Below are positions 1,501-51,060 of a stretch of DNA of 64,000 bases, piece by piece. Position numbers and translations under genes: made by a program. How positions within the stretch are numbered: position 1 is the first letter of the stretch; each line of letters starts with the position of its first letter. The stretch is taken from NCBI GenBank assembly GCA_038380435.1, contig JAWZYU010000010.1, forward strand, positions 42,194,135-42,258,134. Reading direction: 5' to 3'. This DNA comes from Ryuthela nishihirai (taxonomy: Eukaryota; Arthropoda; Arachnida; Araneae; Heptathelidae). Under the pieces are notes generated by a model. The model had not been told where the DNA came from. It ran no database searches and saw nothing but the letters and a program-made list of their open reading frames with translations.

Positions 1501-2372
1501 CACACTCTTCCTGAAATAGGTTTTCCCCAAAATTAATGAAAACTTTTAATTTTAAAACGTTACACAAATTTCAAATATTACAATTTTGTTAGTGAACTTT
1601 ATAACAGTTGTGTTTAACCCTTTCAGCCCTGAATTTTTAATATGAAAAATAAATTTTTTTGATCATCAATAATTGAATGTAAGACATACAAGGACTCCCC
1701 TACTAAGTTTGAGCGGGTTTCCGCCATAGGTTTAGAAACTAGGAAATCGTGGCAAATGCCACCATCAGGTCTCAGAGATAAAAATGGAAGTATATTTTTT
1801 ATTCATTTTAAATAATGTTTTCATTCAAAGATCTTATCAAATTATTTCGTGTGAAAAATTTTGAAACAATTTTTAGATTTCGATTTTAGATCGGTGCTTA
1901 CCAAACATGTTGTTCAGGTTATTAGCATTCATCTTGAATAGCGGAACAATTCGGGTCACTCAGATATGTAAACACTCACTTCTTGTTGAACCATGTCATG
2001 AAATGCGATTCACATACTTTGTAGAGGTGACATCTAGTGATTTATGATGAAACTAGATACTCAGCCAATAGCTGGAACTCTTTACATATTAAGGTGGCAA
2101 ATGCCACCGGCAGGGCCGAAAGGGTTAATATTTTCAAATAAATTTTCATGAGTATAAAAACGTTACAGTTAACCGTTTCAATTCTATAATTCTTTAAATG
2201 TGTGACAAATATTGCGGAATATAAACATTTACAGACACTCGAACGACTGCATCAATTTATTTTCAGTAATGATTTTTCATAAAACACTTATTTTCAAAGG
2301 TATCAAAGTGTTCGGTTACTTTTTGCAATATAGTGCATATGAATATTGAGAGGCTCTTTTATACCATGTCAT
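1501..2372. other. AT-rich stretch without recognised gene
   Basis: The block around 1615-2120 is bounded by similar phrases (TTTCAGCCCTGAA at its left and GGGCCGAAAGGGTTAA at its right), with GTGGCAAATGCCACC-like text inside at 1750-1765 and 2092-2112. It may be an old unclassified repeat. No coding signal is seen. Confidence 0.35.
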
Positions 2373-7734: not shown

Positions 7735-7817
7735 TACACAGTCGTATCAGAATAATATGACCACCTGTCATAATATATGTATGGTAGGTGGTCATATTAT
7801 TCTGATACGACTGTGTA
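7735..7817. mobile_element. Perfect 83 bp palindromic MITE remnant (M3)
   Basis: Perfect 32 bp inverted arms at 7735-7766 and 7786-7817 contain GTATCAGAATAATATGACCA and are separated by 19 bp. The inner phrase AATAATATGACCACCT is the same as in one end of the composite M1 elements at 13.9, 18.0, 32.4 and 46.3 kb. It looks like two near-complete ends of a Tc1/mariner-type MITE with little between them. Confidence 0.8.
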
Positions 7818-13815: not shown

Positions 13816-14645
13816 TTCCTGAGCGTAACTTTTGTGCATACAGTGAACTAAATTCCAGGTTACAAGGGCTTAGATTGGTTGGGGGAAGGGATCCACTAGA
13901 TAACTGCTAGAATACAAATCACACAAAGCATCTAGAGTGTTCTTTAGTGTACAGTCGCTCAAAAAAGTATCCGAACACTATGGTTGATTACAGAATTCAG
14001 AAAAAATGTCTCGCAACGATTTTTTTAGAAATTAGTGATCTGGCAACCTTCGTGTCACGTGATTACAGAATTCAGGAAAAATATCTGGAGCGTTTACAGC
14101 AACTGTACACGCTCCAGTTACCGTTCACAGCAAACTGGAGCGTGTGCAGTTACTGCATACGCTCCAGTTTGCTGTGAACGGTAACTGCACACGCTCAATA
14201 TTTCCGTGAGTGAGCCCACACGATCTAGTATCAAAATAATATGACCACCTACAGTCGCTCAAAAAAGTATCCGAACACTATGGTTGATTACAGAATTCAG
14301 AAAAAATATCTGGCAACGATTTTTTCTAGAAATTAGTGATCTGGCAACCTTCGTGTCAAATTGCCAGATCACTAATTTCTAAAAAAAGTTTCCAGATATT
14401 TTTTCTGAATTCTGTAATCAACCATAGTGTTCGGATAATTTTTTGAGCGACTGCCCATAGAGTATGGCTCTCCTGCACACAGAGACACGACTCATTGTCC
14501 CATCCGACGGAAGGCGGTTTTTTCAACCCATAGGTATCCCCTTTCTTAACGAAGTCAGAATGGGAATTAGCAGAGATAATTCTCAACTCAGGTAAAGTTC
14601 GGATTTGAACCTCGGACTGGAGATTACGTTTTTGACACGCTAACA
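13816..14645 (-). mobile_element. SINE-1 copy split by an M1 MITE
   Basis: The 3' part lies at 13816-13950 (CCTGAGCGTAACTTTTGTGC to GTTCTTTAGTGT) and the 5' part at 14454-14645 (ATAGAGTATGGCTCTCC to the decayed B-box region TTTGAACCTCGGACTGG). The break falls within the conserved GTTCTTTAACGTGCACAG segment, where the M1 composite landed in a TA. Confidence 0.88.
13952..14453. mobile_element. M1 composite MITE, copy a (two units)
   Basis: Unit 1 (13952-14249) starts with CAGTCGCTCAAAAAAGTATC, carries nested hairpins built from GGAGCGTGT(A/G)CAG, and ends AATAATATGACCACC. After a TA, unit 2 (14252-14453) is a simple palindrome with CAGTCGCTC at one end and GAGCGACTG at the other. The left flank is TA; the right flank has lost it. 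Inserted in SINE-1. Confidence 0.88.
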
Positions 14646-17768: not shown

Positions 17769-18137
17769 CAGTCGCTCAAAAAATATCCGAACACTACGGT
17801 TGATATTACAGAATTAAAAAAATATATCTGACGATTTTTTAGAAATTACTGATCTGGCAACCTTCGTGTCACGTGATTACAGAATTCAGGAAAAATATCT
17901 GGAGCGTGTACAGCAATTGTACACGCTCCAGTTACCGTTCACAGCAAACTGGAGCGTGTGCAGTTACCGTGCGTACTGCAGTAACTGCACACGCTCCAGT
18001 TTGCTGTGAACGGTAACTGCACACGCTTAATATTTCCGTGAGTGAGCCCACACGATCTAGTATCAAAATAATATGACCACCTAGTACACGAAGTTCTGTA
18101 ATCAACCATGGTGTTCGGATAATTTTTTGAGCGACTG
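17769..18137. mobile_element. M1 MITE, copy b
   Basis: A 369 bp element between TA dinucleotides (17767-17768 and 18138-18139), starting CAGTCGCTCAAAAAATATCC and ending TTTTTTGAGCGACTG. The interior has two nested hairpins with GGAGCGTGT(A/G)CAG and one M3-type end (AATAATATGACCACCTA) not followed by a second full M1 unit. Confidence 0.9.
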
Positions 18138-21005: not shown

Positions 21006-21170
21006 GTTCCGAACATTTTTGGCATGATGCACTCCAACCTCATTGTCAGTCGTGCTCTGATACGAGCTCATGGGGCCCGGTTTTTATACATGGCTCAAAT
21101 GAGTGTCACGTGTCCATTCGCTGCAGAACTTTGATCATTTGTATATCTCCGATGGCTGATTGTCTCCTGC

Positions 21171-22179
21171 GATTTCCATATCTCTACTTCCATTCCTTGT
21201 TGGCTGTTTCGATTTCCATATCTCTACTTCCATTCCTTGTTGGCTGTTTCGATTTCCATATCTCTACTTCCATTCCTTGTTGGCTGTTTCGATTTCCATA
21301 TCTCTACTTCCATTCCTTGTTGGCTGTTTCGATTTCCATATCTCTACTTCCATTCCTTGTTGGCTGTTTCGATTTCCATATCTCTACTTCCATTCCTTGT
21401 TGGCTGTTTCGATTTCCATATCTCTACTTCCATTCCTTGTTGACTGTTTCGATTTCCATATCTCTACTTCCATTCCTTGTTGGCTGTTTCGATTTCCATA
21501 TCTCTACTTCCATTCCTTGTTGGCTGTTTCGATTTCCATATCTCTACTTCCATTCCTTGTTGGCTGTTTCCATTTCCATATCTCTACTTCCATTCCTTGT
21601 TGGTTGTTTCGATTTCCATATCTCTACTTCCATTCCTAGTTGGTTGTTTCGATTTCCATATCTCTACTTCCATTCCTTGTTGGTTGTTTCGATTTCCATA
21701 TCTCTACTTCCATTCCTTGTTGGTGTTTCGATTTCCATATCTCTACTTCCATTCCTGGTTGGCTGTTTCGATTTCCATATCTCTACTTCCATTCCTTGTT
21801 GGCTGTTTCGATTTCCATATCTCTACTTCCATTCCTTGTTGGCTGTTTCGATTTCCATATCTCTACTTCCATTCCTTGTTGGCTGTTTCGATTTCCATAT
21901 CTCTACTTCCATTCCTTGTTGGCTGTTTCGATTTCCATATCTCTACTTCCATTCCTTGTTGGCTGTTTCGATTTCCATATCTCTACTTCCATTTCCTTGT
22001 TGGCTGTTTCGATTTCCATATCTCTACTTCCATTCCTTGTTGGCTGTTTCCATTTCCATATCTCTACTTCCATTCCTTGTTGGCTGTTTCCATTTCCATA
22101 TCTCTACTTCCATTCCTTGTTGGTTGTTTCGATTTCCATATCTCTACTTCCATTCCTTGTTGGTGTTGCGATTTCCACT
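21171..22179. repeat. 40 bp minisatellite, about 25 copies
   Basis: Units start GATTTCCATATCTCTACTTC and continue CATTCCTTGTTGGCTGTTTC. Most copies are identical. Variants are G to C at the first unit base (21571, 22051, 22091), TGGTTG for TGGCTG (21604-21690, 22124), one 39 bp unit near 21721 and one 41 bp unit near 21991. Because 40 is not a multiple of three and no frame contains a stop, all three plus frames stay open (20855-22183 is one 442-codon frame). I see no reason to call it coding. Confidence 0.97.
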
Positions 22180-22189
22180 TTGAGCAGTG

Positions 22190-26517: not shown

Positions 26518-26790
26518 CGGTCGCTCAAAAAAGTATCCGAACACTATGGTAGATTACAGAATGCAGAAAAAATATCTGGCAACGATTTTTTTGGAAATTA
26601 GTGATCTGGAAACCTTCGTGTCACGTGACACGAAGGTTTCCAGATCACTATCACGTGACACGAAGGTTTCCAGATCACTATCACGTGACACGAAGGTTTC
26701 CAGATCACTAATTTCCAAAAAAATCGTTGCCAGATATTTTTCTGCATTCTGTAATCTACCATAGTGTTCGGATACTTTTTTGAGCGACTG
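26518..26790. mobile_element. M1 MITE, copy c, with amplified centre
   Basis: A near-perfect palindrome between TA at 26516-26517 and 26791-26792. Ends are CGGTCGCTCAAAAAAGTATC and TTTTTTGAGCGACTG. The centre carries three exact 30 bp tandem units at 26621-26650, 26651-26680 and 26681-26710, each starting TCACGTGACACGAAGG. Confidence 0.95.
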
Positions 26791-31159: not shown

Positions 31160-31372
31160 CAGTCGCTCAAAAAAGTATCCGAACACTATGGTTGATTGCA
31201 GAATTCAGAAAAAATATCTGACAACGATTTTTTAGAAATTAGTGATCTGGCAACCTTCGTGTCACGTGTCACGAAGGTTGCCAGATCAGTAATTTCTAAA
31301 AAAATCGTTGCCAGATATTTTTTCTGAATTCTGTAATCAACCATAGTGTTAGGATACTTTTTTGAGCGACTG
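31160..31372. mobile_element. M1 MITE, copy d (minimal palindrome)
   Basis: 213 bp between TA at 31158-31159 and 31373-31374, a nearly perfect inverted repeat meeting at CACGTGTCACG. It has no GGAGCGTGT hairpins. This is the simplest form and probably the ancestral unit. Confidence 0.95.
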
Positions 31373-32176: not shown

Positions 32177-32741
32177 CAGTCGCTCAAAAAAGTATCCAAA
32201 CACTATGGTGGATTACAGAATTCAGGAAAAATATCTGACAACGTTTTTTTAGACATTAGTGATCTGGCAACCTTCGTGTCACGTGATTACAGAATTCAGG
32301 AAAAATATCTGGAGCGTGTACAGCAACTGTACACGCTCCAGTTACCGTTCACAACAAACTGGAGCGTGTGCAGTTTGTTGCACACGCTCCAGCACACGCT
32401 TTTTTACTGCACACGCTCAATATTTCCGTGAGTGAGCCCACACGATCTAGTATCAAAATAATATGACCACCTACAGTCGCTCAAAAAAGTATCCGAACAC
32501 TATGGTTGATTACAGAATTCAGAAAAAATATCTGGCAACGATTTTTTTCAGAAATTAGTGATCTGGCAACCTTCGTGTCACGTGATTACTGGAGCGTGTA
32601 CAGCAACTGTACACGCTCCAGTTACCGTTCACAGCAAACTGGAGCGTGTGCAGTTACTGCAGTACGCACGGTAACTGCACACGCTCAATATTTCCGTGAG
32701 TGAGCCCACACGATCTAGTATCAAAATAATATGACCGACTG
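32177..32741. mobile_element. M1 composite MITE, copy e (largest)
   Basis: 565 bp between TA at 32175-32176 and 32742-32743. Two units each start CAGTCGCTCAAAAAAGTATC (32177 and 32474), carry nested GGAGCGTGT(A/G)CAG hairpins and end with AATAATATGACC. The first junction reads ACCACCTACAGTCGC. The final end is a fusion, ATATGACCGACTG, in which the M3-type end runs directly into the last bases of an M1 terminus. Confidence 0.93.
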
Positions 32742-33361: not shown

Positions 33362-34066
33362 TATTTGGGAATGCTAGTAACGGTAATGGAAGCCAATAAT
33401 TATTAAACTTGTCCATATTTCATGCATTTTTGAAGAAATTTCTTAAAAACCTCTGAAACGGAGGAGAAAATGTAGTTTCTTGACCTCTTTACCTTTTTGT
33501 TGGGGGGGGGGGGGGTGGCTCAGTCGGTAGCACGCCAGGTTCGTAATCTGTAGTTCCCAGGTTCGAGTCCCAGCTGGGTCAGCGTTTAGATTTATCTCCG
33601 CAAAATTCCCCGCCCTGCTCACGGTCAGTAGGGGACACCGATGGACTTGGAAAGGCCGCCGTCCGTCGGATGGGACGTTAAGCCGTGGCTCCGTGTGCGG
33701 GAGAGCCATACCCTGTGCACGTTAAAGAACACGCTAGATGGCCTTGACGGGAGGCTACCATCTGTCTCCCAACAGCTATTCCAGTGGGTCCCCTCCCCCA
33801 ACCTTCTCTGAGCCTTCGGGGTCCATGTGACCTGGCCATTTAGCCCATGGTGTGCAAAAAAGTGCCGCTCAGAGGTAAAACAACCCAACCTTTTTGTTCT
33901 AGATCCGATCCTCTGTTAGGAAATATCGACCACCTCAATTTCATCACAAAGATCGATCGACCATAAATAGACCATTTCGATTTACTCGTTTTAGCCCGAA
34001 CCCAACGTCACCAGAGATGAAATGGGCATCTTAATGAAATCGAGAGTCCATTTACCATTCCTACAC
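33362..34066 (-). repeat. Right arm of the inverted duplication, with a SINE-1 inserted
   Basis: This is the counterpart of 31672-32060 in opposite orientation, interrupted by the SINE-1 at 33502-33887. Without the SINE it is about 310 bp. The SINE insertion therefore came after the duplication or was lost from the other arm; its clean TSD favours a later insertion. Confidence 0.8.
33502..33887 (+). mobile_element. SINE-1 copy, full length, with TSD
   Basis: Perfect 11 bp TSD ACCTTTTTGTT at 33491-33501 and 33888-33898. It starts in a G run, then GGTGGCTCAGTCGGTAGC, B box GGTTCGAGTCCC, and ends AGGTAAAACAACCCA. Close to consensus and so comparatively young. Confidence 0.96.
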
Positions 34067-40525: not shown

Positions 40526-40981
40526 CAGTCGCTCAAAAAAGTATCCGAACACTGCGGTTTATTACAGAATTCAGAAAAAATATCTGGAAACGATTTTTTT
40601 AAGAAATTAGTGATCTTCGTGTCACGTGACACGAAGATCACTAATTCTAAAAAACTCGTTGTCAGATATTTTTTCTGAATTCTGTAATCAACCGTAGTGT
40701 TCGGATACTTTTTTGAGCGACTGTAGGTGGTCATATTAAGCGTGTGCAGTTACCGTTCACAGCAAACTGGAGCGTGTGCAGAACTGCACACGCTCCAGTT
40801 TGCTGTAAACGGTAACTGGAGCGTGTACAGTTGCTGTACACGCTCCAGATATTTTTCCTGAATTCTGTAATCACGTGACACGAAGGTTGCCAGATCACTA
40901 ATTTCTAAAAAAATCGTTGCCAGGCATTTTTTCTGAATTCTGTAATCAACCGCAGTGTTCGGATACTTTTTTGAGCGACTG
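40526..40981. mobile_element. M1 composite MITE, copy f
   Basis: 456 bp between TA at 40524-40525 and 40982-40983. Unit 1 (40526-40723) is the simple palindrome. After a TA, unit 2 starts GGTGGTCATATTA (an M3-type end), then GGAGCGTGTGCAG hairpins, and ends TTTTTTGAGCGACTG. The order is the mirror image of copies a, e and g. Confidence 0.93.
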
Positions 40982-45789: not shown

Positions 45790-46565
45790 CATTTTGAACG
45801 TCTGCATCATCCCTCAACTCGAGCCCCCTTAGTATTCTTCCAAAGTGATGCGTCGGTTTTCCTCAAAAAGTTCATTAAGACGTTTCATTAACACGTACTG
45901 CTGCTTCGACTGGTCTACCAAGTCCATGTTCATTCATTAGGCTTGTGCGACCGTTTCTGAGAAGTTCTTACCATTTGTGTACACCTTTTGATAATAAAAA
46001 CTGTCCCCCATTTTGTGAACACATCCTACAGTAAATTTCCGTTGTTTTGACTCCTTCTGACAGCAAAAAACAAATGACACCTCGCTCTTTAACTGCGGTA
46101 CAGTCGCTCAAAAAAGTATCCGAACACTGCGGTTGATTACAGAATTCAGAAAAAATATCTGGCAACGATTTTTTTAGAAATTAGTGATCTGGCAACCTTC
46201 GTGTCACGTGATTACAGAATTCAGGAAAACTATCTGGAGCGTGTACAGCAACTGTACACGCCCCAGTTACTGTTCACAGCAAACTGGGGCGTGTGCAGTT
46301 ACTGCACACGCTCAAGTTTGCTGTGAACGGTAACTGCACACGCTCAATATTTCCGTGAGTGAGCCCACACGATCTAGTATCAAATAATATGATCACCTAC
46401 AGTCGCTCAAAAAAGTATCCGAACACTATGGTTGATTACAGAATTCAGAAAAAATATCTTTCAACGATTTTTTTTCTGAATTCTGTAATCAACCGTAGTG
46501 TTCGGATACTTTTTTGAGCCACTGTACAATCCGGCAGAGGGTCCGCCACTTTAACAATTGACTGT
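45790..46565 (-). pseudogene. mariner transposase N-terminal pseudogene, split by M1
   Basis: Minus-strand reading: MADPLPDC just right of the M1 insertion, then ERGVICFLLSEGVKTTEIYC and CSQNGGQFLLSKGVHKW on its left. In another frame follow LLRNGRTSLMNEHGLGRPVE and LFEENRRITLEE. This is the two-helix-turn-helix region of mariner transposases (the [I/V]xFLxxEGxxxxEI and NGRTS..E..GRP landmarks). The DDD catalytic domain is missing. Confidence 0.85.
46101..46524. mobile_element. M1 composite MITE, copy g
   Basis: TA at 46099-46100 and 46525-46526. Unit 1 (46101-46397) has nested GGAGCGTGTACAG and GGGGCGTGTGCAG hairpins and an AATATGATCACC end. Unit 2 (46400-46524) is a shortened palindrome ending TTTTTTGAGCCACTG. 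Inserted in the coding relic of the mariner. Confidence 0.93.
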
Positions 46566-50552: not shown

Positions 50553-51060
50553 AGTGGTTTCTAAATTTGGGATCGCAGCATGATACTGTTGGGGTCTATG
50601 TCATAGATAAGTATCGAGGTCGTGATGGTTTCAGAAACAGGTTGGGTTGTTTATAACTCTGAGCTGCACTCTTTTGCACACCATGGGCTAAATTGCCAGG
50701 TCACATGGACCCCGAAGGCTCAGAGAAGGTTGGGGGAGGGGACCCACTTGAACAGCTGTTGGGATACAGATGGTAGCCTCCCGTCAAGGCCATCCAGCGT
50801 GTTCTTTAACGTGCACAGGGTATGGCTCTCCTGCATACGGGCCCACGGCTTAACGTCCCATCCGACGGACGGCGGCCTTTCCAAGCCCATAGGTGTCCCC
50901 TACTGACCGTGGGCAAGGCGGGGAATTTTGCGGAGATAAATCTCAACGCTGATCCAGCTGGGACTCTCAGAAACAGATATCAGTGCCACAATTGTTTAAG
51001 AGACATATATTGGGGTTCGCGACAGTCTCAAACACAGATTATGCGGTGATCATGGAGTCG
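50553..51060. mobile_element. hAT-like MITE remnant with SINE-1 inside
   Basis: CAGTGGTTTCTAAATTTGGG at the left and TATTGGGGTTCGCGACAGTC at the right read like the ends and subterminal region of a non-autonomous hAT. The exact right terminus and TSD were not resolved. The SINE-1 at 50641-50966 interrupts it. Confidence 0.45.
50641..50966 (-). mobile_element. SINE-1 copy, 5'-truncated, with TSD
   Basis: TCAGAAACAG at 50631-50640 and 50967-50976. The reverse copy stops at GATCCAGCTGGGACTC, before the tRNA-like head, so true 5' truncation at integration is likely, as expected for LINE-driven insertion. Confidence 0.95.

What the first reader, a model, noticed from the sequence alone, without database searches (positions are those of the whole stretch)
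32177..32741. M1: a modular, hairpin-rich MITE family that grows by joining end modules
Seven copies (13952, 17769, 26518, 31160, 32177, 40526, 46101) share CAGTCGCTC ends and TA targets but range from a plain 213 bp palindrome to a 565 bp composite. Larger forms add nested hairpins of GGAGCGTGT(A/G)CAG and an end AATAATATGACCACC belonging to a second family. The junctions contain a single TA, as if one element inserted at the border of another and the pair then moved together. In copy f the order of modules is mirrored.
Basis: partly seen in the sequence, partly recalled or inferred. Interest (0 to 1): 0.75.

Follow-up and report, generated by a model that had tools for sequence, protein, structure and literature searches.

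The report
Multimer-forming composite MITE family
A very abundant short, hairpin-shaped "jumping DNA" has fused with other repeats into longer mobile composites, which are spread through a 3.1-billion-base genome and in places repeat head to tail like a young satellite.

Summary
The seven copies are real. The end occurs 155,182 times (<=2 mismatches; reversed-pattern control 2) in the 3.11-Gb assembly that holds the window. Plain form: palindrome E-b-b'-E', about 213 bp, TA flanks, preferred target G-TA-C. The composite E-b-x-h-u-r-q-TA-E-b-b'-E' is no accident of one locus: its junction occurs 23,012 times (control 0) and the stretch ending in q 23,518 times. So q hardly ever stands without the next E: the join was probably founded once or rarely, then spread as one unit. 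The second family is a 79-bp MITE (7737-7815) in which AATAATATGACCACC is inner arm, not an end; the founding join is best read as M1 inserted into the TA that follows it. A second composite type (J2, >=2,030 junctions) can carry a 118-bp tandem array. L units also repeat head to tail (six in L100). The shared E-b start is a direct repeat about 300 bp apart, so unequal exchange explains the arrays better than repeated border insertion. Mirrored copy f is merely the other strand. No multimer seen kept an intact M1 right end, and no autonomous partner was found.

The parts
13952..14453 (+). J1 composite: L unit 13952-14249, TA 14250-14251, M1 palindrome 14252-14453
   Evidence: joined flanks align unbroken to 18 places of a dispersed repeat in the window
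17769..18137 (+). J1 composite: L unit 17769-18081, TA, then only a remnant of the M1 right arm
26518..26790 (.). M1 palindrome whose apex carries three copies of a 30-bp unit
31160..31372 (.). Plain 213-bp M1 palindrome, TA both sides
32177..32741 (+). Flagged copy: dimer of L units (32177-32471, TA, 32474-32736); last M1 reduced to GACTG; outer flanks G-TA and TA-C
40526..40981 (-). J1 composite on the minus strand: M1 40526-40723, TA 40724-40725, reversed L unit 40726-40981 lacking r and most of q
46101..46524 (+). J1 composite: L unit 46101-46397, TA, M1 with its centre deleted 46400-46524
7737..7815 (.). M2: free 79-bp palindromic MITE, ends CACAGTCG, TA both sides; source type of the q module

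Best explanation
M1 is a TA-flanked, palindromic, non-coding MITE, probably moved by a Tc1/mariner-type transposase (inferred). Founding step (inferred): an M1 inserted into the TA inside an M2 sequence lying downstream of another M1 left arm with hairpin DNA (b-x-h-u-r); transposase then used the outer left end and the new M1's right end, so the block L-TA-M1 moved. Spread (shown): the same junction now occurs about 23,000 times, and complete composites have TA on both outer sides. Growth (inferred from shown structure): the block holds two direct copies of its roughly 110-bp E-b start about 300 bp apart, so unequal exchange or repair slippage between them gives L-TA-L-TA-M1 arrays, the reciprocal product being plain M1; exchange in the same arm with a J2 element gives L-TA-J2 hybrids. 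A second founding event gave J2, whose 118-bp interior can repeat in tandem. Hairpin apices are further sites of short duplication and of capture of foreign DNA.
For: Junction counts 23,012 and r-q 23,518 nearly equal, controls 0. Complete J1, J2 and hybrid elements TA-flanked in 12 of 13, 8 of 9, 2 of 2. M2 has TA directly after GACCACC in 3 of the 4 arms of the two M2 copies read. After q-TA-E comes M1 (19), another L (13), J2 (2), truncated E-b (8) of 51 q-like ends. Repeats at 200-355 bp spacing on one strand in 10 of 88 loci of the first 100 listed junctions (my count). L078: inner ends share private changes absent from the outermost unit. No E'-TA-E tandem. Plain arms oldest on average.
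Against: The reciprocal product of the founding insertion (M1 right end followed by the rest of M2) was not found or counted: the search did not complete. The J1 site reads C-TA-C, while 53 of 60 insertions have G at -1. q lacks the outer 7 bases of M2, unexplained. In multimers most units are no closer to each other than to units elsewhere (22 pairs, mean 0.060 against 0.065; nearest neighbours in 2 pairs), which local duplication alone does not predict unless the arrays are old. None of the multimers read kept an intact M1 right end, so movement of multimers as such is not shown. Unequal exchange was not observed directly.
Confidence: 0.6

Rival explanations
1. Serial border insertion: elements repeatedly insert at the TA at the border of another copy, and the pairs then move together; each junction is a fresh insertion.
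For: Nested insertion does happen: L010 is M1 inside M1 at a central TA. Junctions carry one TA.
Against: One and the same junction at about 23,000 places, with q hardly ever free; no E'-TA-E tandem in 102 loci plus window.
Confidence: 0.15
2. Shrinkage: a long ancestor (J1 or J2 type) is oldest and plain M1 copies arose from it by deletion between the direct E-b repeats.
For: Such deletion needs only one exchange; b is lost between 28-bp direct repeats in several copies (L040, L060, L077).
Against: Plain arms 0.0476 from the probe (n 91) against 0.0325 (J1 outer, n 38) and 0.0198 (J2 outer, n 11); Mann-Whitney p 0.0008 and 0.00005, but arms are not independent and subfamilies inflate the plain value. 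The M1 palindrome stands entire inside the composites.
Confidence: 0.15
3. L is a transposon of its own, with the E end on the left and q as its right end, and M1 merely sits next to it.
For: q has a sharp edge at TA in the composites.
Against: r-q and q-TA-E counts nearly equal. Of 8 q-like ends without E within 20 bp, 4 are arms of two M2 elements, 3 (17769, 32177, L073) have an eroded M1 remnant, and L091 runs TA-CAG into diverged DNA.
Confidence: 0.05
4. The arrays are assembly artefacts or segmental duplications.
For: L072 and L096 share flanks and are one duplicated locus; loci are clustered on C1.
Against: Complete composites have different flanks; units in one array differ by several percent.
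Confidence: 0.05

Closest known systems
Tc1/mariner-type (Stowaway-like) MITEs
   Same: Short, non-coding, inverted ends beginning CAG, TA flanks, very high copy number
   Different: Palindrome over the full length, strong GTAC target, composites and multimers; no transposase with these ends was found
miDNA4 and Xstir of Xenopus (as described in the review PMC12628747, passages)
   Same: MITE with internal tandem repeat of varying copy number; miDNA4 is Tc1/mariner
   Different: Here the repeated module of J1 arrays contains the transposon end itself; two composite types share an interior
MER6 of mammals (PMC6887750, passages)
   Same: Composite Tc1/mariner MITE that took in another element and then amplified as a unit
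   Different: One SINE inside one MITE; no multimers in the passages read
CMITE of corals (PMC2872659, passages)
   Same: Tandem MITE arrays and a new mobile element (CMITE-IN) built by MITE insertion
   Different: piggyBac type with TTAA; arrays there are of full elements, ascribed to replication slippage
Tetris and Galileo foldback-like elements of Drosophila (PMC4079207, PMC4168063, passages)
   Same: Long inverted arms, internal tandem repeats, exchange of modules between copies
   Different: Target duplications of 7-10 bp and arms up to kilobases long

Membership tests
Tc1/mariner-type MITE | TA on both sides of the element | tested here: met
   60 of 64 complete elements, probe without TA
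Tc1/mariner-type MITE | Duplication is exactly 2 bp (TA) | tested here: inconclusive
   -1 is G in 53 of 60 and +1 is C in 57 of 60, so a 4-bp GTAC duplication cannot be told apart
Tc1/mariner-type MITE | Terminal inverted repeats | tested here: met
Tc1/mariner-type MITE | Non-coding, mostly under 1 kb, high copy number | tested here: met
   No ORF of 150 aa or more in the window overlaps a copy; lengths under 1 kb; 155,182 ends
Tc1/mariner-type MITE | Autonomous element with the same ends encoding a DDE transposase | not tested
   Only one long E-ended stretch was looked at by eye; no transposase search of the genome was made
MITE carrying a satellite-like array (miDNA4-like) | Internal tandem repeat of varying copy number | tested here: met
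   118-bp and 117-bp arrays, 4.4 copies each, in two J2 elements of L033; other J2 copies have fewer units
MITE carrying a satellite-like array (miDNA4-like) | Long satellite arrays outside the element | not tested
   the unit was not counted genome-wide
Foldback element (Tetris/Galileo kind) | Target duplication of 7-10 bp | tested here: not met
   only TA, at most GTAC, is shared by the flanks

The most novel reading that the evidence does not exclude
A MITE whose composite carries its own transposon end as a direct repeat, so that a copy can pass between 0, 1, 2 ... n modules by exchange while the outer ends stay movable: a mobile array that reassorts with a second composite type, i.e. a satellite in the making that disperses by transposition. 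Arm-to-arm copying keeps the palindromes alike (variants private to one element: 6 on both arms, 70 on one arm).
Probability: 0.3. Interest if true: 0.65.

Novelty: new variant of a known kind. Interest (0 to 1): 0.5.

Why it matters
How MITEs arise and grow is still open. One genome here holds, in tens of thousands of copies, the plain form, two composite types, hybrids between them and head-to-tail multimers, so steps usually inferred from single cases (nested insertion, use of alternative ends, exchange between repeated ends, capture at hairpin apices) can be counted. If multimers move whole, this is a direct route from MITE to dispersed satellite.

Tried and rejected
Exact ends in viral and prokaryote collections: no match; those collections hold no such eukaryote, so this says nothing on wider spread. 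Rfam: no match in the window; ARAGORN: one tRNA-like stretch. The longest E-ended stretch seen (L033:6420-7860, 1.44 kb) was looked at in six frames by eye: frames broken, nothing Tc1-like evident; no family search was run. End sequence as text in papers: 23 papers hold one of four strings; in the 15 listed the 20-base string occurs 0 times and the titles are unrelated.

Superseded: (24 elements, arm distances) (TA in 53 of 54, with a probe containing TA, so circular) (right arms of composites mixed into the simple class). Empty-site test: of 8 elements, 13952 gave clear uninterrupted relatives, 40526 one weak match reaching only 13 bases past the joint, 6 none; for 32177 the end was set 4 bases short, so its negative is not clean, and for 13952 the CC was left in.

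Limits. Loci come from the first perfect matches listed on contig C1 and further stretches there, many in dense patches; J1 loci were chosen on a perfect inner junction. Pattern counts miss copies with more changes or indels. The 102 loci overlap in part (for example L078-L080, L098-L099, L007-L008); duplicates were dropped by sequence before counts. One search leaves out 15 arms of class 'other' (mean 0.0327) and 4 with unseen ends (0.0203). One search counts only elements with both E ends starting at probe base 1; it contains no multimer with both ends.

Full report
What was checked. The window is G000:C10:42194135-42258134 of a 3,110,830,574-base assembly in 1,680 contigs; no organism is named, and repeats and gene density point to a eukaryote (inference).

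Anatomy. Modules: E (end, CAGTCGCTCAAAAAAGTATCCGAACAC...), b (inner arm to the centre CACGTGA), x (second copy of GATTACAGAATTCAGGAAAAATATCTGG), h (hairpins of GGAGCGTGTRCAG), u and r (parts of a 118-bp unit), q (GTATCAAAATAATATGACCACC), j (an AT-rich stretch). Plain M1 is E-b-b'-E'. Window composites are E-b-x-h-u-r-q-TA-E-b-b'-E', with deletions in single copies. I call the part up to q an L unit and the q-TA-E joint J1. Copy f (40526) is the same order on the other strand. The flagged copy 32177 is an L-TA-L dimer whose last M1 is reduced to GACTG; its outer flanks are still G-TA and TA-C, so I read the missing M1 as a later deletion (inference).

The second family. A free 79-bp MITE with ends CACAGTCG lies at 7737-7815 with TA on both sides. 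A second copy is at L031:5739-5820; its right flank reads CA. In both, AATAATATGACCACC is inner arm; in 3 of the 4 arms the next two bases are TA. An M1 inserted there gives exactly GACCACC-TA-CAGTCGCTC. The L unit carries this arm without its outer 7 bases, directly after r.

Numbers. At <=2 mismatches: end 77,718 + 77,464 (control 1+1); q-TA-E 11,502 + 11,510 (control 0+0); r-q 11,764 + 11,754 (control 0+0). The last two patterns differ in length, so the comparison is rough, but L units without a following E must be rare. A second joint, J2, where j runs into an E lacking its first bases, has 1,035 + 995 matches at <=3 mismatches (control 0+0). Of the 100 J2 places listed, 83 are on C1 and 68 of those between 57.3 and 76.6 Mb (my count).

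Mobility as a unit. Of 64 complete, de-duplicated elements with both ends, TA stands on both sides in 36 of 37 plain, 12 of 13 J1, 8 of 9 J2, 2 of 2 hybrid and 2 of 3 other elements. Beside the TA, -1 is G in 53 of 60 and +1 is C in 57 of 60. Joining the flanks of copy 13952 gives a sequence that aligns across the joint to 18 places of a dispersed repeat in the window, at 72-81% identity; the whole 502 bp is extra there.

Multimers and hybrids. L100 holds six L units head to tail, L098/L099 three, L080 three, L083 three (the first truncated). L076 and L088 are L-TA-J2 with TA on both sides. In the first 100 listed junctions, 22 fall into 10 same-strand clusters with 200-355 bp spacing, i.e. 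10 of 88 loci (my count). In 102 partly overlapping loci plus the window, 51 distinct q-like ends were classed: 19 lead to an M1 palindrome, 13 to another L, 2 to J2, 8 to a truncated E-b, 1 to a locus edge, and 8 have no E within 20 bp; of these 8, four are arms of two M2 elements, three (17769, 32177, L073) have an eroded M1 remnant, and L091 runs TA-CAG into diverged DNA. No E'-TA-E tandem was found with up to 4 mismatches. Repeated insertion of whole elements should leave such tandems; exchange between E-b copies should not. In L078 three inner ends share private changes absent from the outermost, as local duplication predicts. Against it: most units in an array are no closer to each other than to units elsewhere (22 within-locus pairs, mean 0.060; other pairs 0.065; nearest neighbours in 2 pairs). 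None of the multimers read has an intact M1 right end, and holds no complete multimer, so I cannot say that multimers move.

Age. Distance of arms to the arm probe: plain 0.0476 (n 91), J1 outer 0.0325 (n 38), inner 0.0322 (n 19), right arms of composites 0.0325 (n 26), J2 outer 0.0198 (n 11). Plain copies are the oldest or most varied class on average. The probe is one consensus-like sequence, arms are not independent, and subfamilies of plain M1 inflate its value: support, not proof.

Other growth at the hairpin. Copy 26518, L020 and L027 have short repeated segments at the apex; L006 has a piece of another repeat between its arms; L033:6420-7860 has about 1.3 kb of other DNA between M1 ends; L010 is M1 inside M1 at a central TA. 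In 44 palindromes the two arms of one element are closer (0.0575) than arms of different elements (0.0794; 0 of 10,000 permutations as low); of variants carried by one element 6 are on both arms and 70 on one; a left arm's nearest right arm is its own partner in 13 of 44. This fits occasional arm-to-arm copying; rare subfamilies would look alike.

J2 and the 118-bp array. In L033 two elements hold 4.4 units each, 95% matches. An L unit with an extra u-r unit before q (L083) shows that both composite types share this interior. L-arms with and without b occur with both J1 and J2.

What is not settled. Which transposase moves the family; whether J1 was founded once or a few times; how q lost the outer bases of M2; whether multimers move whole.

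Literature. Passages read, not whole papers: PMC4079207, PMC4168063, PMC2872659, PMC6887750, PMC12628747, PMC12368964, PMC4678618. They hold the ingredients separately: internal arrays in MITEs and foldback elements, composite MITEs, tandem MITEs. Among the listings I saw no family combining TA-flanked palindromes, two composite joints and multimers of the end-bearing module; these cover openly licensed full text only, so this is weak evidence of novelty.

Noticed in passing
window 2270-2350: Old, diverged relative of the j-E joint (AAAGTGTTCGGTTACTTTTTGCAATATAGTGCATATGAATATTGAG on the + strand), suggesting that the j-E arrangement predates the young J2 copies.
   Followed up: no
L033:6400-7880: M1-ended element of 1.44 kb whose outer flanks are inverted repeats of each other over 20 bp, as if it lay in the centre of a larger palindrome.
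   Followed up: no
window 21165-22180: Array of about 25 copies of a 40-bp repeat, forming a long open frame by chance.
   Followed up: no
window, e.g. 33506-33805 and 50651-50950: Two abundant dispersed repeat families with tRNA-like starts, probably SINEs; copy 13952 is inserted in one of them.
   Followed up: partly
G000:C1 12.03-12.5, 17.4-18.0, 33.8-35.3, 57.3-57.8 and 67.6-72 Mb: Ends and junctions are listed in dense patches, which could be local hopping or regional accumulation.
   Followed up: no
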